Source: Capitulum mitella
Lineage: Eukaryota > Arthropoda > Thecostraca > Pollicipedomorpha > Pollicipedidae
Length of the DNA: 64,000 nucleotides
Direction: 5' to 3'
Assembly (NCBI GenBank): GCA_030062745.1
Contig: CP099849.1
Location: 15,189,307-15,253,306 of the forward strand
Each line of letters opens with the position of its first letter. Position 1 is the first letter of the stretch. The translations under genes and the position numbers were made by a program. Below, piece after piece: positions 7,377 to 50,461 of this stretch. Below the pieces are notes generated by a model, which saw only the letters and a program-made list of their open reading frames with translations, was not told where the DNA came from and did no database searches.

Positions 7377-7540
7377 GGGCGCTGCTAGGATTTTCTTAAG
7401 GGAGGGCGGGGCGGAGCTCAATGAGAACTGAAATTGTACGAAAACCGCCAGCTGGGAAGACGATGTGCAATGTTTTTCACTTAAAAAAAAATGCGGGCCT
7501 AACGGGGCCGGGCCCCCGCCCCTCCCCTCTGGCTGCGCTG
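7377..7540 (+). mobile_element. MITE-like family A, copy 1
   Basis: This is one of six ~160 bp copies. The family reads GGGGCGCAGCCAGGATTTT, then a G-rich run, GGAGCTCAATGTGAACTG, ATACGAAAACCGCCTGC, GACGATGTGCAATGG, an A-run, GCGGGCC, a C-rich run, and an inverted terminus TTGGCTGCGCC. Here the left end is altered to GGGCGCTGCTAGG and an A9 run is present. No coding frame is shared between copies. Confidence 0.75.
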
Positions 7541-15548: not shown

Positions 15549-15706
15549 CCGGGGAGGGGGGGTCGGGGACAGCCCCCGCCCCTTGGGCCCGCATGTTTTG
15601 TGAAAAACGTTGTACATCGTCTTCCGAACAGGCGGTTTTCGAATGATTTCAGTTCACACTGAGCTCCGCCCCTCCCCCCCTCTAAGAGAATCCTGGCTGC
15701 GCCCCG
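15549..15706 (-). mobile_element. MITE-like family A, copy 2
   Basis: A near full-length copy in minus orientation, with GAATCCTGGCTGCGCCCC at its right edge as the inverted 5' terminus. The internal GACGATGTACAACG and AACCGCCTGTTCGGAAG are recognisable in reverse. Confidence 0.8.
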
Positions 15707-17399: not shown

Positions 17400-18350
17400 T
17401 TTTAGATACGAAGAAGTTACCATAGGGCAGATAATTGTCCGCAGATGCCGATACACATCTAATTTCTCTGATTTCTTGAATATTTACTAGGGAAAGTCCA
17501 GTTAAAGATACTGCGATTGTCTGCGACTAAGCGCTGCGGGCGCATGTTCCCAACGCAGGACGAATCTGAAGATCACTAATTTTGGCGTTTCTGTATTTTG
17601 ATGAAATAACCCCTACCAGTCTGCGTTTCTTGATATCGAGAATTCGTATTATGGGTTGCCATGTTTAATTTTCAAAGGATTTAATAGTCGTCAATAGACA
17701 CAACTGGTGGTGCTTTGTTCACGCATTCCCATCCATTTGGAAACTTGCACTATTTTGAATTTTTGATCTTATTGATATCATTAACAACTCTGAGAACCAG
17801 TCTGCCATTTTCCATCCGCTCAAAGTCATTCATCGTAGATTTTGGGGACGGTATATTTTATCTTATACAAGTTACTGATGGCGTGACATCAGGTCAGTTC
17901 CTGGAGGCCAGTAATACTTTGTTCAATGACATTAAATGGGAATTACCACTACGTCATACCCAAAACGTCGAAAAAATCCGGTTATTTTCCGAAAAAACGA
18001 CGGCTTGTTGGAAATGGGCTTGATCTTAGGCCCATGACCTAGAAGTTCCGGAAAACCTGAGATAGAGGCTCGTCGTAACTGTTAAAATCTCTAGTCCCGG
18101 AAAATTTTCATTCGATATCTGTTTTGTTTCAAAACGTCATCGATGGCTGGACTGTTTTAGACATGGGTCTACATGACCTGACCTAGGCACAGACCTTACT
18201 TCGCCTGAAATCAAAACTTTGGTGCAAGATGCAGAGAGGATCAAGCAAAACGTGCATAAAATTTCGTGGCGCTGGGTTTGTTCTTTCTCTCGTAATCTCC
18301 GAAAAACCATTTTGATTTTCCAGGTGGTTCCTGGAAAATCAAACATAATT
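17400..18350 (+). repeat. Family D unit, partial Y plus X copy 1
   Basis: 17410-17560 matches the 3' part of block Y (GCAGATGCCGATACACATCT, TTTCTCTGATTTCTTG, GGGCGC). 17565-18350 matches block X (CAACTGGTGGTGCTTTGTTC, CAGTCTGCCATTTTCCATCCG, AAAGTCATTCATCGTAGATTTTGG, TTCTTTCTCTCGTAATC). Frames are short in all copies. Confidence 0.7.
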
Positions 18351-18869
18351 CGTGAGAAAGTTTAAGAAGGAATATATGACAACTCCCAATCTTGACAATT
18401 TGATTTTCAAGTTAGCGGGCGATAGGGATGGGGCTTTATTGAAAAAAAAATATTGCAAAGGTTCAAGCCGAAAACTAGACTTGAATTGGCCAAGGAAACA
18501 AAATGCATAAATACTTCCTATTTGTTTTTGTTAACCATTCCGCGTCTATGGTTAGTAATGGCGCTGCCGTACTTTAAGGTAGCTACTTTAAAGCTTAGAT
18601 GTAATGCATTGCAATGCACTAAATGTATTGCGAAATCGTTCCTTTGCATTTTTTCATCAGATGTTTCGAAGGGATGCTTGATTTTTCGTTCACTGCAAGG
18701 TTGTCAAAATACCGACAAAACTACAAACTTCCAGCCATGTGCAGACGACCACCATGAACCTGTGATCCAGGACCAGCATCCTACCACTCTCCCAATCCCG
18801 GAGGTATACAGCCCACCAAGGTCTCCTGTTAGGTTGGTAGTATTTTTCAGCAAGCTGTCTGTACCGCCT

Positions 18870-19710
18870 AACCCGCGCCCGACTCGCAGTCGGCGCCAAT
18901 CACGCTCCACGCGGGGTTGACCACCCCCTCTAACTCACGAACGGCTTGTCCTACGATAAGAATAAGCACACCGTTGGAAAGCTCGTGACAAGCAGAGTTC
19001 GAAACTTGTCTCATTCTCATTTATAGGTAAAATGTAAGTCATTCACACCCAACATATGTTTTCTCATAAAGACTGCATGAAACCGAGAAGAGACCTGAAT
19101 CTCACAGCTGTGATTGAAAGGTCTAGGCAAAGGAACCATTGAACAGGTAAAAGTTTGCAGATGCCGATAGACGTCTGATTTCTCTGATTTGTTTAATATA
19201 TACGCCGAAACGATGAATTATCGACACGACGATTTTCGCACTGACTGCCGGCGGGCGCCGTAACCGAATGCGGTATGAAATTAATCTGCGCCGACCTTGG
19301 GTTGGCGCCATGCACGCTCGACTGAGGGGTACGGTTGACCGGCCCCCTCTAACTCACGAACGGTTGGTCGCACGATTAAAATAAGCACACCGCTGGAAAG
19401 CTCGTGACGAGTAGAGCTCGTAACTGGGCTTATTTTTAGCTTTGGGTAATATGTAAGCCATTTACGCCCTATACATGTATTCTCATACCTGCTTGCGTGG
19501 GACCAAGGAACGGCCCGGATCTGAAGGGCTGTGACGAATAAAGTCTAGATAAAGGTATCAGCGGACAGGTAGAAGTACCCAGATGCCGATCCACGCCAAT
19601 TTTCTCTGATTGGTTTAATATGTACACAGAAACGTTGCGTTAAAGACACGATGATTGTCGTAGTGCTGCACGGCGGGCGCCGACGACGAAAACGGCATGA
19701 AATTAACGGG
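18870..19710 (+). repeat. Family D block Y, two tandem copies of about 420 bp
   Basis: 18870-19305 and 19306-19710 repeat the same series: GGCGCCAA/TGCACGCTC, a CCCCCTCTAACTCACGAACGG block, AATAAGCACACCG.TGGAAAG, CTCGTGAC.AG.AGA/GTTCG, AGATGCCGAT, TTTCTCTGATT.GTTTAATAT and GGCGGGCGCCG. GGCGCC palindromes mark the junctions. Confidence 0.8.
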
Positions 19711-20470
19711 AACTAATGTTAGAGTTCTTTTATTTTCGCGAAACATGCCCCTTCATGTGTTGATTCTTGATCCGTTTGGTTCCTGGGATGATTTCTCATG
19801 TTCAAATTTTGAAAAACCCAGTAGTGGTCAATCTACAAAGTTGGCGGAGCTTTATTCACAAAGTTAGTTAGTTCCAAAACAAGCGATTTTTGGAAACTTT
19901 TTCGAATTCTTGGTGTTAGTTCCAACTGTGCGAGCTAGTTCTGCAATTTTCAACCCGATCTGAGTCATTCATCGCCGATTCTGAGGTCAGTGCATTTGGA
20001 CTCATAACAGTTATTCGTGACCTGACCTCAGGTCAGTGGCTGGAGGTCATTGAAACTTTGCTTACTGACGGAAACTGGATGTCTGGATCTCCCCACACTC
20101 ATTTGTTCTAAAAAATTTCGGCAGTTTTCGGAAAAAATGATGAATTATGTTGAAAATGGGCTTCACCTTAGGTCAGTGAACCGTACATTTCCGAAAAATC
20201 CGAAACAGCAGTTTTGTTGTATTTGCCAAAAATCTCCAACCAATGAAAGTTTTATTGTGGTGTTATGTTTTGCGAAAAAGTTACAGGGTGCTAAACTTTT
20301 TCGGACATAAGTCCATTCGACGTGGCCTAGGTCAAACACCTTAGTTAACCTGAAGTCAAAAATTGGCTACAAGGTGTAAAAATGATGAAGCAAAAGATAC
20401 ACCAAGTTTCGTGACGCTGCGTTTGGTTGTTCTCTCGCATTCTCGAAAAATCCTCAAGCAGGGCGGTCAA
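19711..20470 (+). repeat. Family D block X, copy 2
   Basis: This matches 17565-18350 and 20495-21255 in the same orientation. It contains the exact palindrome TGACCTCAGGTCA at 20023-20035 and the conserved AAAGTTT/AAACTTT..CGGACATA block. The end carries TTGTTCTCTCGCATTCTCG. The 86-codon frame inside is not conserved in the other copies. Confidence 0.8.
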
Positions 20471-20494
20471 TCGGCCCCCGCAGTCGGGGGGGAT

Positions 20495-21285
20495 TAACGG
20501 GAATTAATTTTAGCGTATCTCTATTTTTGCGGCATAGGCCTTTCCATGAAACATTTTCTTAATCCTCAAGCTTCATGTGATACTTCCTCATGCTTAAATT
20601 CTGGAAAAATTAATTTCATATCAATCTACACAACTGGTGGAGCTTTAATTGAGAGTCGGCTTGTTTTCAAATTAAGATATTTTTGGACCTTTTTGGACTT
20701 CTTAGTATTGTTTGCAACTGTGCGAGCCAGTTCTGCCATTTTCTACCTGTTTTGAGTAATTCATCGCCGATTTTGACAGTGGTGCATTTTGGCTTATAAC
20801 AGTTTTTCGTGGCCTGACCTCAGGTCAATGGCCGGAAGTCATTGATACTTTGTCTATGGACGGCAAGGAGGTTTTTGCGCCACCTCAAACTAAAAATGCT
20901 CTAAAAACCGTCAAAGCCCGAAAAACGACATGTCATGAAAATGGGTTTAACGCTAGGGCAATAACCGGAGAAATAACCGAAAATAACCAAAAAAATCTGA
21001 GATTGCAGATTTGTTGCATTCATGAAGATCTCAAATTCCTGAATTTTTTGCTGTCATACCATGTTTTCCGAAAAAGTCGCAGGGGGCTAAACTTTTTTTA
21101 GAGAAAGGACGACATGACCTGATCTAGGTCAGACACCTGACCTGACCTAAAGTCAAAATTTCGCACAATGATCAAGCAAAAGGTACACGAAGTTTTGTGG
21201 CGCTGCGTTTGTTCGTTCTCTCGCAATCCTAGAAAAACCTCAGGGGAACGGTCAACCTCCCCCACCCCAGTCGGGGGCGGGTTAA
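20495..21285 (+). repeat. Family D block X, copy 3
   Basis: Directly follows copy 2 after a C-run/G-run hinge (GGCCCCCGCAGTCGGGGGG near 20474). It has the palindrome TGACCTCAGGTCA at 20815-20827 and ends at a similar hinge (CCCCACCCCAGTCGGGGGC near 21260). The hinges look like unit boundaries. Confidence 0.8.
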
Positions 21286-24044: not shown

Positions 24045-25010
24045 GTGTCACGCTTCCTTCTCACCTGGGAGGCAGCCAGACATCTTCGCGGCACCGTCAA
24101 AGCACTGCGTTCACAGGTGCTCAGGGTTCAGGTTCCATTTCTTGAGGACGTCGAGGACGATGGAAGTGATGGTCTCAGCCATGGTTGACGGTGCCTCGTG
24201 GAAACCTGCCAGCACCTCAGGGTCGATCAGGTCGGTGTTGGCGAAACGGCACCAGATCGCTGCCTGCTCCGTCCCGGTCGCGGCGTCCGCCGTCTCGTGT
24301 GCCACGATCGCCTTCCACGTCCTCCGCCACCTTCCGCTGACCTCGGTCGCCTTCACGTCCTCCGCCACCTTCCGCTGACCTCGAGTCGACAGCGTCTTCA
24401 ACATCTCATGCTGGATGTGGTGGGACGGCCAGACATGCTTCCGTTCTCCTCTCACTCTTCGCCATTCTCCCAGACAGGAGCAGTGGAACCTCTGTGAAGA
24501 TTGGGGTGGAGGGGGTGGGCAAACGTGATTTTTACCTAGTTTCTTTCATGCAACGCCAGGGGGTTTATGCTAAATGTTGCCCAAAGTTGTGGGGGTGGCG
24601 GCTGCCCCCTGCCCCCGTTCCAGCGCTCCTTCTTCCAGACTGGGATGGTGGCGACTGGCCACCTTTAGAATCCTGCAGGAGCTCACTGTGTGTTCTCTTC
24701 GTCTGAATGCCACACCTTGGACGGCGACCGTGGAAACCTCGTCGAAGATGGCAGAGAGGGCCGCTGTGTTGGATTCCACATCCTTCTGTTTGACCGTAAT
24801 CGCCAGGTTCAGTATTGGATTGCTCGGATGACGCCTGGTGGCCAGCTGCAAGACAACGAGCTGGTGTGTTTTGCAGTCCTCGTGTTGCATCAGCTTGGCG
24901 ATAGCGTTTTTTTCTGTTCCGGAATCCGTCAGAGGTAAACGCGTCCTCCATCTTTGCTGATGAAATCAGAAGTCCGGCTTGCTGAGCATCACAGCACTGC
25001 TGGCAGGAAT
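24045..25010 (-). pseudogene. hAT-type (DUF4371/ZMYM1-like) transposase remnant
   Basis: Read on the minus strand, the order of blocks fits the N-terminal half of DUF4371 hAT-derived proteins: KMEDAFTSDGFRNRKK (about 24900-24955, the family's GFRNWKKA region), KLMQHEDCKTHQLVV and then AVQGVAFRRRE (24700-24890), IQHEMLKTL (near 24395), AHETADAATGTEQAA (near 24290), and ANTDLIDPEVLAGFHEAPST, which leads to the CFDGAAKMSG block (24070-24110). The family's ADET motif reads AHET. A TGA at 24111-24113 stands where Arg (CGA) is expected before QCFDG, and at least two frameshifts separate blocks. The C-terminal hAT dimerisation half is absent. Clearly a dead, truncated copy. Confidence 0.8.
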
Positions 25011-25565
25011 CCAGTCCCGTTCCCGATCATACGCAATCCACCCCAACATCCACCCCAACGTGGTCGAAAGCGACGATACGGAGCCGCCACTGCCGGTTGC
25101 AGGGATGCCTCGTGCAGCTTGGTTGCTCTGGGGTGAGCACGGGACGGAGGTACAAGAGTTCCACGGGTAGTACAGGGTACAGATGGTGCAGGATCGGCAC
25201 AGGACTGTATCTCGAGAGGAGAAACGATTGAAATCGAGGACAGCGTCATCGGGCTATGTGTTGTAAGGTGTGTGGCGTTATACGCATATTAAACAATCAC
25301 AGGTTGGGCAAAATTGGTGTTCATCATGGGTCGGGCCAACCCTATTGGCTTGGGGCCGAATTATGGCGAGGTGCAGCCATTTCCGCAATGTTATGGGTCT
25401 GAACTGGACCGGGCCCTGACTTTGCCGCGCATAACGCTTTTTAACATCTCATTCCATGGAAGGAATGAGTCCTATCCATTGAAAAGTCGTGAAAAGTATG
25501 TGCGTTATACCAATTTACTATCGCTACTGGTATCGTTTGTGCCGTAATGGTTCTGAGGCATAGAG
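25011..25565. other. Mostly featureless; may hold the 5' end of the hAT remnant
   Basis: The expected TTF-type zinc finger of a DUF4371 element would lie here on the minus strand, but only disconnected fragments are visible. The repeat CAATCCACCCCAACATCC/CACCCCAACGTGG occurs near 25035-25065. Confidence 0.3.
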
Positions 25566-25569
25566 CAGG

Positions 25570-27087
25570 GCAGAGTGGTGCTCCAACGATTTTAGGGCAA
25601 AAGTTCGTATCGCAGAACCTCGTGGGACAAAACTTCGTCGGACTGAGATTCGTTGAACAAAAGTTTGTTTTGCAGAAGTTCGTCGTGTAAAAGTTCGTGT
25701 GGTGTAAAAGTTCGTCAGGGACAAAAATTCGTTGTGCAACAGTTCGTTGTGAAAAGGTTCGTCTATGTTAAAAGTTCAACGAGGGTAAACGCTCGTCGAG
25801 GACGGAATTTCATCTAGGACAAAAGGTCCTCTTGCAGAAGTTCGTCTAAGGCAGAAATTCTTCTAGGGCAAAGGTTCTTCTCGGACAAAAGTTCTTCTCG
25901 CAGAAGTTCGTCTAAGACAAAAGTTCGTATAAGGCAAAAGCTCTCATGAGGAAAGTTTGTATAGGACAAAAGTCCGTCTTACACAAGTTAGTCTAAAACA
26001 AGAGTTCGTCAAGGGCAAAAGCTCGTCCAGGACAAGTTCGCCTTGCTAATGGAAAAGAATCGTACTACAGAAGGTCCGTATGGAAAAGGTTCGTAGGGAA
26101 AATGCTCGTAAGGGAAAAGGTTCGTGAGGAAAAAGGTTCTTAACCAAAGGTTCGTAAACGTTAGGTTTGCATTGGAAAGATTCGTAGCGGAAAAGGAATG
26201 GATCTAATATAATAACCTACCCTAACCTCTTTGTTGGACCGAACCAAGTCCGGTCGCACCCTTCATCGGCCTGCGGCCTCTGGTATCCAATACAGCGCCC
26301 TCGGTGAGCGGTTACGCGTTCGGCGCGGACCCGAAGTGAACCTTTTCCTACCTTTTACGAACCTTTGGCAACGAACATTTTTCCTTTCAAACTTTTTCCC
26401 TTACGAACCTTTTTCCTACGAACCTTTTCCATACGGACCTTTTGCGGTTCAAAGTCATCGAGTCACGCACCTTTTCCGATACGCACATTTTACCATACGA
26501 GCATTTACCATACGAACCTTATGTATAAGAACCTTTGGCTGCAAACCGTTTCCCATACGAACCCTTGACTTACAAACGTTGGTCCGGTTACCCGCTCGCC
26601 TGTGACTCGGGCAGGTTCATGCGGTGCACAGTGGTTAAAGTGGGATATGCACCGGTTGGAATGAGATCAGTTCCGGATCCGGCCATGGCGAATCAGAGCC
26701 TCATTCACCAGCATGATTCCACTAGTTGTCGTCTGACAGTTGGCAATTTTTCTTGACTGCACGGGCATTGCCCTTAAGGACTTTGTTGCGAGAACCATTT
26801 GACACGGACAGGGTTTTTTCCTGGACAATTTTTTCCTTAGACGAACTTTTGTCCCAAACGAATTTTTGCGGGGCGAACTTTTATCATGGACGAACTCTTG
26901 TCCAAGACGATCTTATGTCCTATACAAGCTTCCGTTGGGCGAACTTTTGTCCTATACGAACTTAAGCGAAACGAACTTTTGCCCTAGATGAGGTTTTGTC
27001 TGACGAACTTTTGTCATTACGAACTTTTAACCCATAAATTATTGCCCTACGAACTTTCGCCCGACGACCGTCTGCCCGAAAACCGCT
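25570..27087. mobile_element. Foldback-type element 1, arms of ~17-20 bp subrepeats
   Basis: The left arm (25570-26195) is a degenerate tandem array of GGACAAAAGTTCGTCTA-like units. The right arm (26338-26590 and 26785-27087) is the same unit reversed, TAGACGAACTTTTGTCC. The outer ends match: ACGATTTTAGGGCAAAAG at left, and reversed CGGTTTTCGGGCAGACGG at right. The middle (26200-26337) includes AACCTACCCTAACCTC. The right arm is split by unrelated GC-rich sequence (26590-26785). Long inverted arms built of short direct repeats are the defining structure of foldback (FB-type) elements. No transposase frame is present; repetitive peptides read from the arms are artefacts. Confidence 0.75.
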
Positions 27088-27271
27088 CCAACGGTTTGTA
27101 AAGCATAGACGATACAGGAAGCGATGCGATGATGGCTTGCTTTGCTATTTCGAAACGACTCACTATTTCTTGTTTTCGATCTCTCCGTTAACCCATGATC
27201 CTACCACACGAGGAAGCAGCGTCTGGTTTATGAGACCCAAAGCATACGTCTGACAGTCCTGGTCTCTGCAG

Positions 27272-27458
27272 GATGAAGGAGCCGACACGACGGAGCAAAT
27301 ACTTCCGGAGCCGGTCTCCGGTCCACGAGCCTCTGTCGACCAAAGCTGGCGCCACCGTGGAGGGCGGCGCCGAGGAGAAACACTGGAGGATCCAGATGAT
27401 GATCGAGTACACTGCAATACCCGAGAGCAGCGAACACGAGCCTGAACACGACGGAAAG
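27272..27458 (+). CDS. Probable coding exon of an unrecognised gene
   Basis: A strong acceptor (TGGTCTCTGCAG, ending 27271) and a good donor (GGAAAG|GTAGGT at 27459) enclose an open frame. After one base it reads 62 codons starting MKEPTRRSKYFRSRSPVHEP and ending SSEHEPEHDGK, so the donor is phase 0. The peptide is charged, Ser/Arg/Glu-rich at the start, with a more ordered centre (EEKHWRIQMMIEYTAIP). The ATG directly after the acceptor could be an initiator or simply an internal Met. Local GC is high relative to the flanks. No family was recognised. It could belong to the same long gene as the exon at 42008, but nothing here proves it. The overlapping minus frame (27163-27603) lacks splice support. 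Confidence 0.45.
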
Positions 27459-27599
27459 GTAGGTGACTGGCAGAAGGGCTCCGGCGGGTGCCGAGGGCTT
27501 CAGGGCGGAGAGACGGCTCGGTGCGCTGGCCGGTCAGGCGGACGCGGAGTGGGGCAGGTGGCGCTGCTGGCCCGTTACCGGCCGAACCAGCGACGCAGC

Positions 27600-28500
27600 C
27601 CACTACCAGGAGAATACGAAACCTCAGTCTTATAGATGGTTACTGCGTCTGCAATAGTTTGAACACAAAGTATCTGGCACTTTTAAGAGTGAAATTTGAT
27701 GACTGTGTGTACAGCGTTCGCAAATCCGGTTTTGGCACAGATGTTGGAATGGAAAAACGAAACAAAGGTCGATTCTGGGAGCACTCCCAAAGTCCACTTG
27801 GAAAATGGAAATATTCCTCATCACTGTTTTGTAATCAGTATGATATTGTCTGCATGAATATCAATTGATCACATCTACGAGTCAGAGTTTTCAACGCGGC
27901 TGTTGAATTTGTAGACGCAGACGAACAAGTTAAAACACAGCTGTTATACTAATTGTACACACCAGGAATAGGTTCAAAGGCAGGCTCTGCTGGGTCATAT
28001 TTCATACTTAAGATGCATCGCAAAACTTCCAGATAACCATCTGGATTGGTTTTTTGCACTCATTTCCATCGGGAAAAGTTCGCTCTCAAGCTTTGGAGTT
28101 TTTCATACTCTGTAATACGGGACATTCGCGAAGAGCCCGAGCATCAGACACCTTGATTTAAATTTCTGACATCTGGTCGCTGAGGGCAGGAAGATGACGA
28201 ACCTTTCTGACATGAACAAAACGTCAGAGTAGTTTCACACATATAAGCGAAAAAGGTCCTCTGTCGCAAGAAATAGTGAGAAGACGCAGAGGAGGGTTTC
28301 GCGTTCTCCATCTGAGACTCTTATAAGCTACCAGGCAGGGGCGGAATTTTATGTTTTTGATTGGGGATGCAGTCAGGGATACAAGCAACTTCGCCCACTC
28401 CCAAATGCGGATTTGTCATCGGGTTTGGGATATGTTTTTTTACGACCTGGAGCAATGAAAAAAATATAAATGAAATTATAACTTAAAACGTTGTATTTAT
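27600..28500. other. No gene seen
   Basis: AT-rich probable intron or spacer. A plus frame at 27488-27868 reads through the donor above and is not credited beyond it. Confidence 0.3.
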
Positions 28501-28660
28501 TTTTTGTATCGTCCCTGTATATGCAAACCCCTCTCCATATATCTGTCTATTTTTGACTACACATATATATATATATTGTCATCACTTGGCATTTTTAACA
28601 TATGCTTTATATTTTATACATGTTTTATGAACTTTTGTTATGTCTTATCTGGTGAGTCTT

Positions 28661-28663
<3 letters not shown>

Positions 28664-28716
<53 letters not shown>
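28664..28716. repeat. (TA)n microsatellite, about 26 repeats
   Basis: Uninterrupted AT dinucleotide run followed by CACATATATT. A shorter ATATATATATAT run lies at 28563-28576. Confidence 0.97.
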
Positions 28717-28724
<8 letters not shown>

Positions 28725-28989
28725 TTACCTAACGCTTTATTCAAGTGTATAGGCAAATATCAGGGAAAGCATACCAAAGTATCTTTGTTGAACTTAGGGT
28801 ATTCCACAAGGCCAGGTGAAGTTGAAAAGTCGAAATGTGGCTTCATGCGTGTTTTGCATTTATCTTCGAAATGATAAAAACGGAAAGCATGTGATTTATC
28901 ACAGGACTCTCTACTTGTGTTTCAAGTTTCACATAGATGTCACGTCTGATCACACAGTTATGACCAAAAATATTCTTGCACGTACCCTA

Positions 28990-29652
28990 TATGACGACGG
29001 CCGTAAGTAGGACATTAAGGATTACAGTCAACTAGAAAACTGATATCGTTTCTAAACACTACAAAAATGCGCCCAAGAACATTTCCAGTGACTTCGAGGT
29101 TACTTGAGGTCATCTGAGGTCAAAGGTCAACAAATCATCTGATGAAAATGCAGCCATGACAGTTCCCCTGTTCATGCCTCTGACACCACCTATGCGAACA
29201 TCACAAGCAATGTAATACGATTTGTACTTCGTAAGTATAAAATTACTCGGACAAGTTAAAGAAATATTGTTACGTTTTCTGCTAATTCGTTTTCAAAGAA
29301 ACATACTACCTATTTTACAAACCCTGTGGACGCCTATTAATTTTGCCAGAAGTAAACACGTGGGCTAAAGAGAAAAATTTCATCACTTACCAGTCGATTA
29401 ACGCCAGCTTCATCAAAATCGGCGCTTAACATCGGCATTACAAGAAGCCAAATATATCTCACTTCCGATTTTTTTTTACTCGTGTCCATCGCTTGCAACG
29501 TTTCCAAAATTTATCGTTTTAATGTAGTTCAAGTCATGTCGAACCGACTGCCATTTGTAATCAAATTGGACGGGTAATTCTCGAGACCTTAGGAGGGGGA
29601 ATGAGCCCCTCATACGGGAATGCCTTCATGCGTTGTGGGTACGGGAATAGGG
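28990..29652 (-). mobile_element. piggyBac-like element, second diverged copy
   Basis: The right end reads GGGTACGGGAATAGGG followed by TTAA at 29653-29656. Reversed, this is CCCTATTCCCGTACCC, matching the left terminus of the 579-1777 element. Internal matches in inverted orientation are TCTCGAGAATTAC (29576-29588, versus 661-673), GTAATACGATTTGTACTTC (versus the complement of 1023-1041) and CATGACAGTTCC (versus the complement of about 1083-1094). The left end is eroded or lost, perhaps near the TA tract. Non-coding. Confidence 0.65.
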
Positions 29653-29974
29653 TTAAACCTTACCTGACAAACAACCCCAGGGCTACCTGTTAACTTACCC
29701 AGACGTCGTTCGTGATTAAATGATGTGTTAAAAGCTCTTGCCTAGGAAAATACGATGGTGAGCCATGGACGTATCAAAGGAAAGGGCAGGCGAGCGAGGC
29801 GCCCCCTCCCCTCCCTTGGCATTTTGGCGCGCTTAATACGCCTAAGAGCGCACAATTTGAAAGCCTTAGCCACCGAAGACGGGTAAGAATGTCTGTGAAT
29901 GACATGGAAGCCATTCACGGACGAATGTTGTCCATGGACACAAAGACACCCAGTCTTTCAAGAGCTTCCGTGAT

Positions 29975-30055
29975 CGGTAGCTCAGTTCACGGCGGTAGCT
30001 CAGTTGGTAGAGTGCTAGGCTCTCCGTCCTGGCAAGAATGGTTCGGATCGCTCGG
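29975..30055 (+). other. tRNA-like sequence with duplicated A box; SINE head or tRNA relic
   Basis: GGTAGCTCAGTTGGTAGAG at 29994-30012 is a textbook Pol III A box/D-arm, and GGTTCGGATCG near 30040-30050 resembles a B box/T-loop. The first part, CGGTAGCTCAGTT, is also present at 29975-29987. I could not fold a convincing T-stem or acceptor stem, so it is not called a functional tRNA. It sits 55 bp before a MITE-like copy. Confidence 0.45.
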
Positions 30056-30105
30056 TGTTCGGCCGGCGGGTCAGCTGGCAACTGACCAAAAGAGGATCAA
30101 GCTCA

Positions 30106-30272
30106 GGGACGCAGCCAGGATTTTGTTAAGGAGGGGGCGGGGCGGAGCTCAATGTCAACTGAAATCATACGAAAACCGCCTGCCAGGAAGGCGATGTGCA
30201 ATAGTTCTCGCAAAAAAATGCGAGCCTGAGGGGGCGGGGGCCGGGTCCCCCTGAACCCCCCTTGGCTGCATC
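30106..30272 (+). mobile_element. MITE-like family A, copy 4
   Basis: Starts GGGACGCAGCCAGGATTTTG and ends CTTGGCTGCATCTG. The full internal consensus is present, including GCGGAGCTCAATGTCAACTG and GGCGATGTGCAATAG. Confidence 0.85.
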
Positions 30273-30275
30273 TGT

Positions 30276-30600
30276 GGTCAAGTTGACTACGACTTGACCG
30301 CATGGCCGTGTCGCACGCTTGGTGGCACGTTGAATTTTCGTCACAAAATTAACCGTTACCTGGAATTACCCGATCGAATAAGGGGGTCGAAGTTTGTGGA
30401 ACAAGCTATGCTTCGCAAGGCCCCGAATGGCTAACATCATCCCAGGGATCATTTGGTTCCAGTTTATAAAAAAAAGAAAAAGAAAGAATCGCCACTGTGA
30501 CGGGACACGGGCGTCCCTTTATCAAAAAGACGCTCCTGTAAAATCGAGGAAGCGGCCATGACATAGGGCACGTGCACTCCGTCTTTATAAAGCCGTCGTT
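30276..30600. other. No feature recognised
   Basis: Short A-rich stretch (AAAAAAAAGAAAAAGAAAGAA near 30468-30487) and no frame of note. Confidence 0.3.
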
Positions 30601-30604
30601 AACA

Positions 30605-30715
30605 CAGAGTTGTTTGACACAGACAGGACACGAAGGACACAGAGACGCCCTTGCGATCGTGTATGGGCGCCCTGACGTTGAAAAGGAGTCTCTGTGACAC
30701 CAAGGAGACCAGTGG
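30605..30715 (+). repeat. Isolated unit(s) of the ~62-bp repeat family
   Basis: GACGCCCTTGCGATCGTGTA followed by TGGGCGCCCTGACGTTGAAAAGG and TGACACCAAGGAGAC match the array unit at 34715-35280. The block is followed by a MITE-like terminus (GTGGCGTAGCCAGGGGC at 30713). Confidence 0.65.
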
Positions 30716-30794
30716 CGTAGCCAGGGGCAAAGGGGCCATGACCCCCTGGCGGCCGAACGGGCACCCCTGGGCCGAAGGCCCTAGTTCTTCGAAA

Positions 30795-30957
30795 AGTGTG
30801 AGGCGCCCTACGGGTACCTCACACTTACACTGTAAGTGTAAGTGTGAGGTGTGAGGCGTAAGTGTAAGTGTACACCTCACACTTACACTTACAGTGTAAG
30901 TGTGAGGTGTGACAGTGTAAGTGTGAGGCGCCCTACGGGCACCTCACGCTTACACTG
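30795..30957. repeat. Nested palindrome of GTAAGT/ACTTAC repeats flanked by a direct repeat
   Basis: GTGTGAGGCGCCCTACGGG occurs at 30796-30814 and 30921-30939 and is followed each time by ACCTCAC.CTTACACT. Between and around these, TAAGTGTAAGTGTGAGGTG and its complement CACCTCACACTTACACTTA alternate. Several mutually exclusive hairpins can therefore form within 160 bp. Confidence 0.9.
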
Positions 30958-31281
30958 TCCGAAATAGACAATGAAAGCGAAATAAGAATATTTTAACCAC
31001 TAAAGAAGGTTTACGAGAAAGCGGGTGAAAAAATGCAATCCGAATACACAAGAGGGCTTTGTGTGCTACGAAGCGAGGCCCGTGGTCTGAATGAGTGTTT
31101 TGGGGCCCCTGCTAGCTTGTGGGGGAATCCACTGCTTTCCTGGAGGAGACCCCCTGTTGGCCCATAAAGGGCCCTGTCACACTCTGAAGAGACCCACTTT
31201 CGGTCTGGATGAAGGCACCTGCCCCTGCCTCCAGAGGCCGATTGGGGTCCGTTGTAGACGGATAGGAAACCCTCTACAGCA

Positions 31282-31436
31282 GGGGCGCAGCCAGAACTTT
31301 CTGGGGGGAGGCAGGGCTCAACGTGAACTGAAATCATACGAAAACCGCCTGCTGGAAAGATGATCTGCAGTGGTTTTCCCAAAAAGTGCGGATCTTAGGG
31401 GGGCTGGACCCCGGGTTCCCCCTTTGGGTGCGCCGG
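31282..31436 (+). mobile_element. MITE-like family A, copy 5
   Basis: Begins GGGGCGCAGCCAGAACTTTC and ends TTTGGGTGCGCC. It is more diverged inside (GATGATCTGCAGTGG) than copies 3 and 4. Confidence 0.8.
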
Positions 31437-31516
31437 TGCTCTACCGACAAGCAGTGCCCCCCCCCCTAACCCCCACCCTGCAGGCTAAGAGGGATTCTAA
31501 ACGTTTATTCAGGGGT

Positions 31517-31600
31517 CCTTGCTTGTCTGTAAAGATGCCCCTGCCGACCCGTAAGGGACACCCGCCAGGTCGGCAGGAACGTCTTTACAGGCAAGCAGGG
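31517..31600. repeat. Imperfect 33-bp hairpin
   Basis: 31517-31549 pairs with 31568-31600 with about five mismatches and an 18 nt loop. The core stems are CTGTAAAGA/TCTTTACAG and CCTGCCGACC/GGTCGGCAGG. No T-run follows. Confidence 0.8.
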
Positions 31601-31779
31601 ACCCGTTTACAGTCCAGCGGAGCGCCCTACAAACCGACAGTAATTTTAACCACAGGGACTCCCACTGACTCGAGGGCCAGGCACGGATGCGGGGGAGGGG
31701 AGCGATGGGGCGATCCCCCTCCCCCTCTAAGGGGCCCCTGTTAGACATGACCCGAAGTGGCTCCTTATGAGCCTCACGG

Positions 31780-33310
31780 ATTTCTGTGGAAACGTGGCGG
31801 GCTCTTGATGCAGTCAGGGGCCTCTGACAGGGTTAGATGACCCCTGAGGTGCAAAGAACTGAAGTCCCAAAGGGCCCCTGAGACCACAACAGGGCTTCAA
31901 CGCGGCAGATGGTCCCTGAGACCGCCAGAAGGGTCACAGGGCACCTGAGACGGCCAAAATGAGGACTCAGTTTGTAGGATGACGTATGGGTCCTTGGAGT
32001 GCCATGCGGGGCCCCGAATTTGTTTCGCGAGCCTGTGTGAAAAGCTGAAGGTTCTTGATGTAGATGTAGAGGGCCTCCGGGAAGATTAATGAGATCCTGA
32101 GACAGTAAGATGGCCCCTAAGATAGATAAGAGGGTCCCTGAATCCTGTCTCCATGGGTTTCTTGGGCCGCAACGCGGCAAAGGGTTCATAAGACCACTAA
32201 AAGTGCTAGAGGGACCCCTGGGACGCAAGGAACTTAAGAGGGTGCCTAGCACGGCATAAGGAGACCCATGGCCAGCCAGAGACACCCCATGAACGGGAAT
32301 TCATCGGTGACCTTCTCAACCTCGAGAGGGGTCCCAAATAGGTTACACTGGTGTTTCTGAAAACCTGCAGGGTTCTTGATGCTGTAAGGGGGCCCGGGAA
32401 GGTCAGGTGGCTCCTGAGACGGCAAGATGGACTTGTACACCGCAGGTGACCCCTGAGGCAGCCAAAAAGGTCGGAGGGCCCCTGCGAGGCAAAGACGATA
32501 AGACAGTCTCTAAAACCGCATGGAGAAGCTCTCGAAAACCAGAGGGCCCCCGAATGTGTGAGGCGGGCTCCTAGCAATGGCAAGGTCCCCAGAGACCGCC
32601 AGTGAGGCCCTTGAAGTGCTAACAGAGGCCCTTGTTATGGCTAGAGGAACGTTAAGGCTGCTAGATATACCCCATGTAACTGCGGAAGACCCCTGATACA
32701 GCCACGAGGACCACCAGAGACGATCGGAGGACCCTTGACACCGCATAGCGGCCCTGAAATTACCAAAAGGCCTTTTGTAACTGGTAGGGCCCCTGAGACG
32801 GCAAAACTTCCCCTAGAGATGATAAGGGGGCACCTAAGACCACAGGGGGCCCACTGACACTGTTAGAGAGGGACCTTTAGGACTGCTAACGAGAAGTCTC
32901 TAGCAATAGGGGCTCCTGAGACAACCAGAGGGGCCACTGGAACTTCTAAACCTTGAGAGGTCCAGACCGCCTCTGAAACGGCTAAAGGACCCAGAGGATT
33001 GCCAGAAGCTCCTCTGTCATGGTAGAGAGACTTATAGAGGGCTTTTGTTACTGCCTGAGGGGCTCCTCAGACGGCAAAAATGTTCCAGGGACGACAGGAG
33101 GGAACCTGAGATGGCTTAAGCGTCCCTGATGGCAAATGGGTCCCGCAAACTGTCCGGAGTGCCCCTGAAACTGCCAAAGTAGCGCCTGAGACGTCGTGAG
33201 GGACACGCGAAACTGTAAAAGGAACCTGAGACCACTAAAGGGTCCTGGCACGGTAGACGGCCTGAGGCCAACAGAGATGCCCCTGTAACTGCATGAGGAA
33301 ACCTAACCTA
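31780..33310. repeat. Long degenerate minisatellite, ~28-36 bp units
   Basis: Variants of GGGCCCCTGAGACxGCCAxAAG recur dozens of times over 1.5 kb with irregular spacing and about 20-30% divergence. Minus-strand frames of 125-150 codons (31833-32285, 32206-32583) are produced by the repeat and are not credited. The array ends at AACCTAACCTAAGTTAG (33301-33317), a TTAGG-like motif, shortly before foldback element 2. Confidence 0.8.
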
Positions 33311-33456
33311 AGTTAGCAAAAAAGTCTGCAGAAACTACGGGGGGCGGGGAAGGGCAGATACAGACACAGGCATAGGTACAGATGCAGGTACAGGCTCCTT
33401 GACCTGATACAGACACCATATTTGAAATGAAGGGAGGGCAGAGCCGCCTAAAATCT

Positions 33457-34430
33457 TACCGTTTTTGCCGGTTTTTGGGCAGGAGTTCGTCGTACTTAAG
33501 TTTGTAGGGCAATGGTTCGTCGGGTAATAGTTCGTAAGGACAAACGTTCGTTGGACACAAGTTCGTCTAGGGCAAAAGTTCGTCTCGCGAAAGTTCGTAT
33601 GGACAAACTTCGTCCACGACAAAAGCTCGTCTAAGACAAAAGGTTGTCTCGCGAAAGTTCGTGTAGGACAAAAGATAGCCTAGGACAAAAGTTTGTCCAG
33701 CAAAAGTTCGTGTAGGACATAAGTTCGTCTAGGACAAGAGTTCGCTCAGGACGAAAGTTCGTCTCGCGGGAATTCGTCTAAGGCAGAAGTTTGCCTGGGA
33801 CGAAATGTTAGGATACGTTAAGTTAGGTTAGGTGAGGCCGGCTTAGGTTAGTTTAGGTTAAGTTAGGCTAGGCTGGTGTACTATTTTAGATCGTTCTTTT
33901 TCCGAAGCGAAGCTTTTCCGATACGAACTTTAAGTTCACGAACCCTTGGTGACGAACCTTTTTCGTTACCAACGTCGTCCCTTAGACCCCTTTTCTACGA
34001 ACCTTTTCCTTACGAAGCTTTTGCAGTACAAACCTTTTCCATTATCGAGACAAACTTGTCCTAAACGAACTTTTGCCCTTGACGAACTATTGTTCCAGAG
34101 AAACTTCTGCATGACGGACTTTTATCCTGGACAGACTTTTCTCCTTACGAGCTTTTGCCTTATACGAACTTTAGTCTTAGACGAACCTCTGCGAGAAGAA
34201 CTTTTATCCCAGACGAACCTTTTTCCCTAGCCGAACTTTTGTCCTAGACGAACTTCTGCAAGACCGACTTTTCATGACGAACTTTTGTCCTAGACGAATT
34301 TTCGCCCAAGACGAACTTTTCCACGGCGAACTTTAGCGCGACGAACTTTTGCGCGAAGAACTTAAGTCCGACGAACTTTTGCCGATGAGCTTTTGTCCAA
34401 CGAACTTCTGAGATTCGTTTTTGTAATGTT
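33457..34430. mobile_element. Foldback-type element 2, same family as element 1
   Basis: The left arm (33457-33805) is a run of GACAAAAGTTCGTCTAG-like units starting at CCGGTTTTTGGGCAGGAG, almost the same terminus as element 1. The right arm (33900-34430) is the reversed unit (CCTAGACGAACTTTTGTC). The centre (33807-33877) is a degenerate series of TTAGGTTAGG, TTAAGTTAGGC and similar. Having two copies with the same ends, arm unit and TTAGG-like centre shows this is a repeated element, not a chance array. Non-coding. Confidence 0.8.
33807..33877 (+). repeat. Degenerate TTAGG-like run at the foldback centre
   Basis: About eight GTTAGG or CTTAGG steps occur in 70 bp (GTTAAGTTAGGTTAGGTGAG, then GCTTAGGTTAGTTTAGG). 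TTAGG is the common arthropod telomere unit. Degeneracy argues for an internal telomere-like relic or a coincidental GTTAG minisatellite. Confidence 0.6.
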
Positions 34431-34469
34431 TCGGCCACGTCATAGGGGAACAAAAGACAGAATTTTCTG

Positions 34470-34714
34470 AAATGAGGTTTTACGCGCCTGAATTTTTTTT
34501 TTTAGGTGGTAATGAAAACAAAATTACATCAAATATTCCCCGCACGAATTTTTTCTTTCTTTCTTCTTTTTTATTTTGCTTTTTCATATCTGAGGAGCAA
34601 AAATGGGGGCCCGCGCTGACGATTGGTCTCCATCCACAGCTTTGGCAAAATACGAGGGCCCCCTTAATCCGATTTGGCCCCCCCCCCCGGGCGGAATCCT
34701 GGCTACGTCTCTGA
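34470..34714 (-). repeat. Possible MITE-like element sharing the GGCTACGTC terminus
   Basis: The right edge GCGGAATCCTGGCTACGTC (34691-34709) is a variant of the family A terminus and matches the start of the 39615 element in reverse. A C13 run precedes it, as in family A. The left end is not clear. A T/C-rich tract (34545-34580) lies inside. Confidence 0.4.
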
Positions 34715-35280
34715 CGGAGACCCCCCTGAGATGCGGTATTGGAACCCTGTCGCTTAAAAGGTGGCCCTGTCAGACAAAGCGTAAAGCGCTGTGATGGAAT
34801 ATAGGCGCTCCGTTATTTAAAATGTGCCACCGTGACACCAAGGAGACACCACCGGAACGGTGTGTGGGTGCCCTGTCGTTCAAAAGGCACCCCTTTGACA
34901 CGAAGAAGATGCCCTTGCTATGGTGTATGAGTGCCCTGTTGGTAAAAAAGGCGGCCCTGTGCCACAAAGGATGTACTCCGTGACGGAGTATGGCCTCCCT
35001 GTCGTTCGTGCGGCCTATGTGATACGAAGAGGGCGTCCCTGTGATGGTTTATGGCCACCCTGTCGGTCAAAAGACGCCCTGCAAAAGAGTACGGTTGCGC
35101 TGTCGTTCAAAAGAGGCCCTTGTAACGAAGGAAACGCCTCTGCGACGGAGCATGGACGCCCTGTGGGAAGGCGCCCGTTGACACCAAACAGGCAGCCATA
35201 TGATGAAGTATGAGTAGTCTGTTGTTCGATAGGTGCTGGTGTGGCACTACGACGAAGGCCTTTGCGTGATGGAATTCTTG
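34715..35280 (+). repeat. Tandem array of about 62-bp units
   Basis: About eight diverged units carry GCCCTGTCGTTCAAAAGG, a GGCCCTGTGACAC.AAGG block and GTGATGG.GTATGG. Overlapping frames on both strands are by-products. Confidence 0.75.
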
Positions 35281-35319
35281 AGTCATGCCATTCAAAAGGC
35301 GTCTTAAGACACGTCTGTT

Positions 35320-38110
35320 TACTTGGCACACATACTCGTATTTGTATTCAGCACACGTCACATATTTTGCCCAATTTACCTCACTTGGTCGATCTGACCA
35401 TGCCGTTTCCGAATCTGAAGTTCTTTCTGCCATAAGTTTGGCCATTCGACCTCTAGATTCAAACAACGCAGATTCAAGGTCAACGATGGGTACAAGCATA
35501 GCCGTCCACTTCTGACATCAGACTGTACAAATGAGGTACCAAACCAAAAGAGAGGAACCGTCCGCAACTTTGACGACCCAAAGGATCAAGGTCAAGATCC
35601 GTCGTCAAGGTCATAATCAAGGTCAAAAGATGGGGACAAACATAGCCGCCGATCTCATGACACCAAACTGTACAAATGAAGTATCAGACTAAAGAGGAGA
35701 ATATAACAAAGCTCACGTCATGGCTTTAAATTTCAAGCTGCCGTATCAGAAAACCTTCAGATTTCAAAGTTTGCTAATTTGTTTTCTAAGTCGTAGAGAT
35801 TTCCCTTCAAAAGCCTTTGGTTTGGAAGACTGTATAAGGCTACCAGATGCCTTCAACTCTAAATCCCACAGTGGGCACAGAGGGGAATCAGACAAAGACG
35901 TCTGAGAACGCATTAACACCTTAAGTACATCAATCGTGCCACAGTGCCGCTAGGTGAATCATATCCGCAATGTTAAACGATACTTCCTTTTTCCAATTTT
36001 AAAATAGCTTACACCCACGGAAACTTCTGGAGTCTTGCATCCGCCTTACATCAGCCAGTTCTTTGAACTGTATTAACAGCAATTCGCAACTTAGGCGACC
36101 AAAAAGGTCAAGGTCATGGTTCTTTGTCAAGGTCATAATCAAGGTCAAACAGCCACTGACCTCTGGCAACGAATTGTACAAATGAGGCATAAGACCAAAG
36201 AGGGGAATTGTCAGCAACTTGGACGATCCAAAAGGTGAAGGTTAAGGTCCGTCGACAATGTCCTAAGCAAGGTCAAGGGACAGGGGCAAAAATAGTTGCC
36301 GCCGCTTTGATCTGAAACCTTACTTGTACATTTTGGTGCCATAGAGCAGCGACTATGTTTGTCCCCGTCCCTTGACCTTGATGAGGACCTTGACGACGGA
36401 CCATAACCTTGGCCTTTTTGGTCGTCAATGTTACGGACTATTTCGCTCTTTTGCCTGATTCCTCATTTTTACAGTTTGTTGCCATAGATCAGCAGTTATA
36501 CTTGTCCCCGTCATTTGACCTTGCTGAGGACATTGACGATGGACCTTGACCTTGACCTTTTTGGTCGTCAAAGTTGCGGATTGTTTTCTTCTTTGGTCTG
36601 ATTCCTCATGTGTACTGTTTGGTGCCACAGATCGGCGGCTATGCTTATCCCAATCATTTGACCTTGATTAGGACCTTGACGACGGGCCTTGGCCTTGACG
36701 TTTTTGGTCGTCAAAGTTGCAAATTGCCACCCTCTTAAGTACGATACCTCATTTCTACAGTGTAGTGCCATAGATCGGCAGCTATGCTTGTCGCCGTCAT
36801 TTGACCTTAATTAGGACCTTGACGACGGACCTTGACCGTTACGTTTTTGGTCAGCAAAGTTACGGACTATTTTTTTTTGTCTGATGCTTCATGTGTACGG
36901 TTTGGTGCCATAGATCGTCGCCTACCGTTATTAAAGCCCTTTGACCTTGATTGGTACCTTCACGACGGACCTTGGCCTTGACCTTTTTATTCGCGTAAGT
37001 TGTGCATTGCTGCCCTCTTTAGTGCGATGCTTCCTTCGTACAGTTTAGTGTCATAGGTCTGCGGCTATCCTCGTCCCCGTCCTTTGACCTTGACTGTGAC
37101 TTTGACAACGGAGCTTGACCTTGGTCTTTTTGGTCGTCAAGGTTGCGGATATCTCCCTTTTTGCTACAAAACCTCATTTGTTTGGTGCCATAGGCCAGCG
37201 GCTATGCTTGTCCCCGTCCTTTGACCTTGACTATGACCTTGACGACGGAACTTGACCTTGGTCTTATGGGTTGTAAAAGTTGCGGATGGTTTACCGCTTT
37301 GGTGCGATACCTTATTTGTACGGTTTTGTGACAATGGCCAGCGACTATGCTTGTCCCTGTTCTTTGACCTTAATTATGACCTTGACGACGGACTTTGACC
37401 TAGACGTTTTTGTGTCGACAAAGTTGTGGACCATTTCCCTCTTTGGTCTGACTCCTCATTTGCACAGTTTAATGCCAAAGGTTGGCGGCTGTGCCTGTCC
37501 CGATCGCTTTACATTGACTATGACCTTGATAACGGACTTTGACCTCGAACTTTTTGGTCGTCAAAGTTAAGGATTTCTGCCCCTTTTTGCTACGATACCT
37601 CATTAGTACAGTTTGGTGCCATAGGTCGGTGGCTGTGCTTGTCCCCATTCTTTGACTTCGGCTATGCCGTTGACGACGGAACTTGACCTTGATCTTATGG
37701 GTCGTCAAAGTTGCGGACGGCTTCCCCCTATGGTCTGATTTCTCATTTGTACAGTTTGGTGCCATAGGTCAGCGACTATGTTTGTCCCCATCTTTTGACC
37801 TTGATTATGACCTTGACGACGGACCTTGACCTTGATCCTTTGAGTCGTCAGAGTTGCGGACGGTTCCTCTCTTTGATTTGGTATCTCATTTGTACAGTTT
37901 CTTGCCAAAGGTGGACGGCTATGCTTGTCCCCCTCGTTGACCTTGAATTTGCGTTTTTTACCTCTAGGGGTCAAAGGTCAAACTTACGGGAGAAAGAACT
38001 TCAGATTCGAAAACGGCATGGTCAGGTTGACCAAACAGGGTAATTTGGGCAAAATCTGTGGTGTGTGCTGAGTACGAATATGAATATGTGTGCCAAGTTA
38101 ATGGACGTTA
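35320..38110. mobile_element. Foldback-type element 3 with ~143-bp satellite arms
   Basis: 35320-35480 is the reverse complement of 37960-38110 (shared: TTGGCACACAT, TTTTGCCCAA, GACCATGCCGTTT, GAAGTTCTTTCT, GGTCAA). Inside these ends the arms are ~143 bp units in opposite orientation: a few units in the left arm (35480-35705 and 35995-36310) and about twelve in the right arm (36335-37960). The orientation switches near 36310-36335. A segment at 35705-35990 interrupts the left arm. No transposase frame is present. Terminal unique ends plus inverted satellite arms fit a foldback element that has amplified one arm. Confidence 0.75.
36335..37990 (+). repeat. ~143-bp tandem array, about 12 units, rich in TCAAGGTCA sites
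   Basis: The phrase TGCCATAGxTCxGCGGCTATG recurs near 36338, 36480, 36623, 36766, 36907, 37053, 37187, 37331, 37473, 37618, 37760 and 37904. Each unit also carries CTTGTCCCCGTC.TTTGACCT, GACCTTGACGACGGACCTTG and TTTTTGGTCGTCAAAGTTGCGGA. TGACCTTGA (reverse TCAAGGTCA) appears two or three times in most units. Minus frames in the array repeat short peptides and are not credited. Confidence 0.9.
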
Positions 38111-50115: not shown

Positions 50116-50120
50116 AGGGG

Positions 50121-50461
50121 GTCCGTCTCAGTTCTCCTGGCAGGCGGCACTGGAGGGGGTCCGTCTCAGTTCTCCTGGCAGGCGGCACTGGAGGGGGTCC
50201 GTCTCAGTTCTCCTGGCAGGCGGCACTGGAGGGGGTCCGTCTCAGTTCTCCTGGCAGGCGGCACTGGAGGGGGTCCGTCTCAGTTCTCCTGGCAGGCGGC
50301 ACTGGAGGGGATCTGTCTCAGTTCTCTTGGCAGGCGGCACTGGAGGGAGTCCGTCTCAGTTCTCCTGGCAGGCGGCACTGGAGGGGATCTGTCTCAGTTC
50401 TCCTGGCAAGCGTCACTGCTCGGGGCCCATCTCATTTCTTCTGGCGAGCCACACTGTTGGC
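50121..50461 (+). repeat. 38-bp tandem repeat, about nine units, open in all plus frames
   Basis: Units start at 50121, 50159, 50197, 50235, 50273, 50311, 50349, 50387 and about 50425. The unit is GGTCCGTCTCAGTTCTCCTG plus GCAGGCGGCACTGGAGGG. The first five are nearly identical; units 6 and 8 share GATCTGTCTC, which suggests a two-unit duplication. Since 38 is not a multiple of three and the unit has no stop, long frames appear in all three registers (157-223 codons). They are artefacts of the repeat. Confidence 0.95.

What the first reader, a model, noticed from the sequence alone, without database searches (positions are those of the whole stretch)
25570..34430. Foldback element family with a TTAGG-like centre, two copies 7 kb apart
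25570-27087 and 33457-34430 share the same architecture: an outer terminus like CGGTTTTTGGGCA, a left arm of degenerate GGACAAAAGTTCGTCTA units, a centre with TTAGG/CCTAA-like steps, and a right arm of the reversed unit. Inverted arms made of short direct repeats define foldback (FB-like) elements. The short ~17-20 bp unit together with a telomere-like centre in both copies is something I do not recognise from a described family. It may be a new element, or a structure that arose from telomeric or hairpin repair.
Basis: partly seen in the sequence, partly recalled or inferred. Interest (0 to 1): 0.85.

Follow-up and report, generated by a model that had tools for sequence, protein, structure and literature searches.

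The report
Two decayed foldback transposon copies
Two stretches of this unidentified, probably eukaryotic DNA look like old protein-less copies of one jumping element with long mirror-image ends built from a short repeat; it is a new family of a known kind, with an odd telomere-like centre.

Summary
Two foldback structures lie at 25589-27084 and 33470-34416. Their inverted arms consist of a degenerate unit, consensus GGGCAAAAGTTCGTCTA; of 81 spacings between 85 outer-arm units, 75 are 15 or 17 bp. The order of variant units is conserved between opposite arms of the two copies (0, 0, 0 and 1 of 1000 unit shuffles reach the observed score) but not convincingly within a copy (40-446 of 1000). So these are two insertions, in opposite orientation, of one ancestral element that already had two distinct arms, not a satellite in both orientations. 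The terminus CG[GA]TTTTNGGGCA stands at 3 of 4 ends, and copy 1 is flanked by an exact 9-bp direct repeat. TTAGG-like steps sit at the homologous central point of both copies (about 3 and 13 steps); at 14/15 stringency they occur nowhere else in the 64 kb. Best reading: a decayed, non-autonomous Mutator-type foldback DNA transposon, built like Muta1 (Aedes) and Tm1 (Meloidogyne). No transposase was found among 150 ORFs, the host is unidentified, no whole genome is held, so the superfamily is inferred. New family, known kind.

The parts
25580..25588 (+). Left target-site duplication of copy 1, GCTCCAACG (8-bp reading GCTCCAAC, 25580-25587, if the termini are taken as symmetric)
   Evidence: exact 9-mer shared with 27085-27093; junction-level chance 24 of 200000 random pairs
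25589..27084 (+). Copy 1 of the foldback element, 1496 bp
25589..26045 (+). Copy 1 left outer arm (28 units, 15/17-bp spacing), terminus (CG)ATTTTAGGGCA
   Evidence: order conserved with copy 2 right arm
26046..26200 (+). Copy 1 left inner arm, units like GGAAAAGGTTCGTA
26201..26335 (+). Copy 1 middle segment, beginning with the short CCTAA-like tract (about 26213-26228), otherwise unique in the window
26336..26566 (-). Copy 1 right inner arm
   Evidence: 26347-26444 pairs with 26068-26165, 98 nt, 86%
26567..26805 (+). Copy 1 second unique segment, absent from copy 2
   Evidence: best local score against the copy 2 centre 14; no other significant match in the window
26806..27084 (-). Copy 1 right outer arm (15 units), terminus GGTTTTCGGGCA on the minus strand
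27085..27093 (+). Right target-site duplication of copy 1, GCTCCAACG
33470..34416 (-). Copy 2, about 947 bp, inverted relative to copy 1; right boundary uncertain
   Evidence: 25673-26228 matches 34410-33865 at 75.5% over 559 columns; 26838-27085 matches 33731-33469 at 73.2% over 265
33470..33806 (+). Copy 2 left outer arm (20 units), terminus GGTTTTTGGGCA; counterpart of the copy 1 right arm
33807..33872 (+). Degenerate (TTAGG)n tract, about 13 steps, at the centre of copy 2
33896..34044 (-). Copy 2 inner arm, on one side only
   Evidence: order conserved with the copy 1 left inner arm, 0 of 300 shuffles
34045..34416 (-). Copy 2 right outer arm (22 units); counterpart of the copy 1 left arm, about 85 bp shorter at the outer end and without the terminal motif

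Best explanation
Both loci are old, non-autonomous copies of one foldback-type class II (cut-and-paste) DNA transposon, most likely mobilised by a Mutator-like (MULE) transposase encoded elsewhere. Shown: two copies with the same asymmetric arm order in opposite orientation, shared termini at 3 of 4 ends, an 8-9 bp direct repeat around copy 1, no coding capacity recognised. Inferred: a transposase reads the terminal motif together with the tandem units of the arms as a multi-site binding array, pairs the two ends, cuts the element out and joins it to a target cut with an 8-9 bp stagger, which fills in as the target-site duplication. The arms change by gain and loss of units. The centre is free to vary and carries unique DNA plus a TTAGG-like tract. 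The about 19-20% difference between homologous outer arms points to copies that inserted long ago and are probably inactive.
For: Unit order conserved c1L-c2R (0 and 0 of 1000) and c1R-c2L (0 and 1 of 1000), terminal 25 nt left out (with termini 0 of 300 for both). Identity of these arm pairs 81.2% over 325 and 80.3% over 223 aligned bases, against 72.2% and 78.5% within copies. Exact 9-bp direct repeat abutting the motif-defined ends of copy 1 (24 of 200000 random junction pairs do as well). Terminal motif at 3 ends and nowhere else in the window. Spacing 15 or 17 bp in 75 of 81 cases. Published analogues: Muta1 has 8 or 9 bp TSDs and TIRs of a 10-bp terminal motif plus nine 12-bp repeats with 3-4 bp spacers; Muta5 has a 15-bp repeat (PMC5225508, passages); Tm1 has composite TIRs of about 14-bp units and 9-bp TSDs (PMC3169594, passages and part 1 of the Discussion). 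Binding of a transposase domain to repeats in long foldback-like TIRs was shown for Galileo (PMC3688188, abstract and Discussion).
Against: No transposase family matched among 150 of the 151 stop-to-stop ORFs of 90 aa or more (one HTH_29 match at E 0.044 is at the level expected by chance). Only one of two copies has a convincing target-site duplication: copy 2 shares only CGTTTTTG near its ends, not abutting the left terminus, and 1119 of 19872 random pairs of 70-bp segments share a word of 8 or more. The right end of copy 2 lacks the terminal motif. With 9 bp the two termini of copy 1 differ by one base in register; the symmetric reading gives 8 bp. One within-copy comparison is borderline (c1L against shuffled c1R, 40 of 1000). 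Core positions of the unit are not significantly better conserved between copies than spacer positions (47/291 against 43/181 mismatches, p 0.053), so selection on binding sites is not shown. Two copies is a small sample, and 8-9 bp TSDs are not unique to MULEs.
Confidence: 0.8

Rival explanations
1. Foldback element of another superfamily (P/Galileo-like, Merlin, hAT or an unclassified kind): same cut-and-paste logic, different transposase.
For: Foldback structure arises in several superfamilies; Galileo is a P-type element (PMC3573991, abstract start in the listings; PMC3169594 Discussion). The 8-bp reading of the duplication is also open.
Against: [quoted passage not shown] The termini do not begin with CAG or CA as hAT and P ends usually do (recalled, not tested).
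Confidence: 0.2
2. A satellite or minisatellite present in both orientations, with no mobile element.
For: The unit is short, degenerate and tandem.
Against: Conserved order of arm variants across copies in inverted correspondence, shared termini, a flanking direct repeat, and a homologous centre. Strong unit hits outside the copies are 2 of 51.
Confidence: 0.04
3. A palindrome made by local inverted duplication (template switching or hairpin repair), twice or once followed by duplication and inversion of the locus.
For: Inverted arms; the two copies lie 6.4 kb apart in opposite orientation.
Against: Arms within a copy are not close in unit order (c1: 40 and 172 of 1000; c2: 446 and 304 of 1000), whereas a recent duplication would make them the closest pair. 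A search of each copy with flanks against the window gave no match outside the two elements, so no duplicated flank is seen.
Confidence: 0.05

Closest known systems
Muta1 and Muta5 (Mutator-like elements of Aedes aegypti, type 2 foldback; PMC5225508, passages seen)
   Same: 8-9 bp target-site duplication, short terminal motif, subterminal tandem repeats with a 15-16 bp period, many non-autonomous derivatives with variable interiors
   Different: Muta TIRs are 145-151 bp with 9 repeats; here the outer arms are 279-457 bp with 15-28 units and a 15/17 spacing, plus inner arms and a TTAGG-like centre. No sequence comparison with Muta1 was possible (its letters were not available)
Tm1 (Mutator/Foldback family of root-knot nematodes; PMC3169594, passages and Discussion part 1 seen)
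   Same: Composite arms of variable numbers of about 14-bp units, 9-bp TSDs, arms of one element unequal, some copies without a terminal motif or TSD, MITE-like and longer forms; one terminal motif begins CGGTT
   Different: Other unit (CGATTCAGTATCCGC), 1-9 units per arm, no telomere-like centre mentioned in what I read, a transposase-bearing member known
Tetris (foldback of Drosophila virilis; PMC4079207, passages seen)
   Same: Non-autonomous, modular foldback with inner and outer arm domains, 8-10 bp TSDs, no transposase found, assigned to Mutator from TSD length
   Different: Tandem repeats of about 220 bp; source of a satellite
Rehavkus (PMC6446971, passages seen)
   Same: 9-bp TSD, TIRs up to 400 bp, minisatellite inside the element, arthropods and annelids
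   Different: Minisatellite lies before the 3' TIR rather than forming both arms; the defining transposase is not seen here
Interstitial telomeric sequences inserted at double-strand breaks (PMC2246262, PMC7215372; search listing with abstract starts only)
   Same: Short telomere-like tract inside a chromosome, possibly at a break-prone point
   Different: Those are vertebrate TTAGGG tracts at single loci; here a TTAGG-like tract is at the homologous centre of two element copies

Membership tests
Foldback (FB-type) elements | Long inverted arms composed of short direct repeats | tested here: met
Foldback (FB-type) elements | Shared termini and recurrence as a mobile unit at more than one site | tested here: met
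   two copies, motif at 3 of 4 ends, arm order conserved; one end of copy 2 fails
Class II transposon | Target-site duplication | tested here: met
   copy 1: exact GCTCCAACG on both sides; copy 2 inconclusive
Mutator (MULE) superfamily | 8-11 bp TSD | tested here: met
   9 bp (or 8 bp) in copy 1 only
Mutator (MULE) superfamily | MULE/DDE transposase in the element or in an autonomous relative with the same ends | tested here: inconclusive
   none among 150 ORFs of the window; the rest of the genome is not held
Tm1 | Motif C units and A1/A2 ends | tested here: not met
   unit consensus GGGCAAAAGTTCGTCTA is not the published Motif C
Rehavkus | Rehavkus-type transposase with PHD finger | not testable with these tools
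   no coding sequence in either copy; no autonomous relative available
P / Galileo | P-type transposase with THAP domain | tested here: inconclusive
   no such match, window ORFs only

The most novel reading that the evidence does not exclude
The (TTAGG)n tract is not incidental: the hairpin apex of this foldback family is a break-prone point where host telomerase added telomeric repeats. In copy 2 the tract sits exactly where about 580 bp of copy 1 (most of the middle segment, the right inner arm and the second unique segment) is missing, as expected if a central break was resected, capped with TTAGG and rejoined. The short CCTAA-like steps at the same point in copy 1 would be the seed or a remnant. 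The element would then be a recurrent generator of interstitial telomeric sequence.
Probability: 0.1. Interest if true: 0.6.

Novelty: new member of a known kind. Interest (0 to 1): 0.35.

Why it matters
Foldback elements are repeatedly invented in different genomes, cause inversions and seed satellites (PMC4079207, PMC3573991, seen as passages or abstract starts). This family gives unusually clear unit-by-unit homology between two copies, which separates shared ancestry from mere unit similarity. Its TTAGG-like centre at a homologous point in both copies would, if general, offer a way to test whether palindromic transposon centres are sites of telomerase capture. Otherwise it is an ordinary addition to the catalogue.

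Tried and rejected
Whole-genome search: answered that no genome is held, so copy number, empty sites and an autonomous partner could not be sought. Exact patterns of two joined units or of the terminus: 0 matches in viral contigs and in prokaryotic genome contigs; copy 2 in distant mode: no match among phages. These collections are not where a eukaryotic transposon is expected, so the negatives weigh little. Rfam gathering search and ARAGORN on the window: nothing. Pfam on 150 of 151 ORFs of 90 aa or more: 16 families at E up to 0.1, each in one ORF, none a transposase or reverse transcriptase domain; nine ORFs again at E up to 1: nothing above a curated cut-off; one ORF against PDB chains: nothing. 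The host was therefore not identified; a TTAGG telomere would suggest an arthropod, but that is only a hint.

Dyad symmetry of the unit, noted by eye, was tested and rejected: 8 matches, reached by most of 5000 shuffles. Purifying selection on the unit core between copies: suggestive only, p 0.053. A target-site duplication for copy 2: not accepted (CGTTTTTG, T-rich, not abutting the left terminus). The idea that the inner right arm of copy 1 is a recent inverted duplication was dropped: three-way identities are 95/127 (c1Li-c1Ri), 97/127 (c1Li-c2Ri) and 93/127 (c1Ri-c2Ri), so it looks as old as the split of the copies, although one 98-nt stretch is 86% alike. A unit profile at 9 bits or more gives 13 of 59 plus and 6 of 48 minus hits outside the copies; no shuffle control was run at that threshold. 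In 70-bp windows the second-best TTAGG-period score of the window (36) lies at 26114, in the inner left arm of copy 1, where the unit itself partly mimics the period. At 13/15 a few further TTAGG-like spots exist (21135, 33300, 46856).

Literature: 10 searches. Four motif strings of the unit (13-15 nt) gave 0 papers. I found no paper on a foldback element with a TTAGG centre in the listings, which is no proof of absence; Repbase was not available.
Full report
Setting. The window is 64 kb with CpG observed/expected 0.95 and about 48% GC. It has no Rfam or tRNA hit and no whole genome is held for it. It is probably eukaryotic (tandem arrays, dispersed degenerate repeats, no long ORFs), but no call identified the host.

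Observation. Reading 25000-35000 and the repeat searches confirm two foldback structures. I define copy 1 as 25589-27084 (1496 bp) and copy 2 as 33470-34416 (947 bp, right boundary uncertain). A refined profile finds 85 units in the four outer arms (28, 15, 20 and 22). Spacings are 15 bp (37), 17 bp (38), 16 bp (3), 14, 18 and 29 bp (1 each); the outermost units are spaced about 15 bp. A second unit family, like GGAAAAGGTTCGTA with spacing mostly 14-16, forms inner arms on both sides of copy 1 and on one side of copy 2. Both copies fold, as single-stranded DNA, better than each of 20 dinucleotide shuffles (z -8.0 and -11.5).

Are the two copies the same element? The key test asks whether the order of variant units is shared, by comparing alignment scores with those after shuffling the units of one arm. 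Opposite arms of the two copies agree: c1L with c2R 0 and 0 of 1000 (z 9.8 and 8.6), c1R with c2L 0 and 1 of 1000 (z 4.4 and 4.6), terminal 25 nt removed. The eight other directed comparisons give 40 to 502 of 1000; the lowest is c1L against shuffled c1R (first version). Hence copy 2 is inverted relative to copy 1, and the two arms of the ancestor were already distinct when the copies separated. This does not fit a satellite placed in both orientations, or a fresh palindrome at each locus. Inner arms agree in order too (0, 0 and 1 of 300).

Ends. The motif TTTT[ACT]GGGCA occurs three times in the window, at three of the four ends, in the wider form CG[GA]TTTTNGGGCA. Copy 1 is flanked by exact GCTCCAACG at 25580-25588 and 27085-27093. 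A 9-mer shared within 2 bp of given junctions occurs in 24 of 200000 random pairs. If the termini are held symmetric (GATTTTAGGGCA and GGTTTTCGGGCA), the duplication is 8 bp. Copy 2 has no terminal motif on the right, its right arm is about 85 bp shorter than its counterpart, and its only shared flank word (CGTTTTTG) is not convincing. I read copy 2 as truncated or rearranged at that end.

Centre. TTAGG-period windows at 14/15 or better start at 12 positions in the whole window: 10 at 33817-33853 in copy 2 and 2 at 26213-26214 in copy 1. The alignment of copy 1 with the reverse complement of copy 2 runs through the left outer and inner arms up to exactly this point (26228 against 33865). So the telomere-like steps are a homologous feature of the family, long in copy 2 (about 13 steps, 57 of 70 bases) and short in copy 1 (about 3 steps). 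In copy 2 the tract adjoins the opposite outer arm directly, and the 577 bp that follow in copy 1 (26229-26805) have no counterpart. The tract may be an expanded microsatellite or a captured telomeric repeat; the data do not decide.

Mechanism. Shown: insertion-like ends with a duplication in copy 1, two inverted copies of one asymmetric element, no recognisable transposase in the window (150 of 151 ORFs scanned). Inferred from published systems: a transposase supplied in trans recognises the terminal motif and the tandem units, synapses the ends and moves the element with an 8-9 bp stagger. In Aedes MULEs the same plan is usual: 8-9 bp TSDs in 14 of 14 families and 9-15 bp subterminal tandem repeats in 10 of 12 long-TIR families; Muta1 has 12-bp repeats with 3-4 bp spacers, and its derivatives with variable interiors move in yeast (PMC5225508, passages). 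In Galileo a transposase domain binds sites in the long repeated TIRs (PMC3688188, abstract and Discussion). I could not show selection on the unit core here (p 0.053).

Filing. What it works like: a Mutator-type foldback element (Muta1, Tm1, Tetris). Membership: foldback architecture and target-site duplication are met, transposase identity is untested for lack of genome data, and Tm1 membership fails on unit sequence. I file it as a new family of a known kind, with the TTAGG-like centre as its one unusual trait.

Age. Homologous outer arms are 81.2% (325 aligned bases) and 80.3% (223) identical, so the copies are old and probably dead. This is an inference, since the neutral rate of the host is unknown.

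Noticed in passing
35311-38108: Another inverted-arm structure 0.9 kb right of copy 2: arms 35311-35697 and 37725-38108 pair well around an 11.5-copy, 143-bp tandem array (36305-37946). One 109-nt stretch is 94% complementary. It may be a second foldback or satellite-bearing element; no target-site duplication was recognised by eye.
   Followed up: partly
31640-33330 and about 34710-34990: Degenerate minisatellite-like DNA (recurring CCTGAGA / GGCCCCTGAGAC words; 58-63 bp steps at 34727-34910) on both sides of copy 2, as if copy 2 had inserted into such an array.
   Followed up: no
33300-33315: A short CCTAACCTAAGTTAG stretch, 13/15 TTAGG-period, about 155 bp outside the left end of copy 2.
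   Followed up: no
15596-15705, 30106-30215, 31303-31414, 7403-7514: A dispersed roughly 110-bp repeat family in both orientations (69-82% alike to a reference copy) within the window.
   Followed up: no
12301-13372 and 19345-20453: Long inverted pair of dispersed repeats (72-77% complementary pieces), with related direct copies at 17414-20891.
   Followed up: no
50116-50445: Clean 38-bp tandem array, 8.7 copies, 92% matches.
   Followed up: no
30805-30960: Palindromic simple-sequence block built of CACTTACACT / AGTGTAAGTG words.
   Followed up: no
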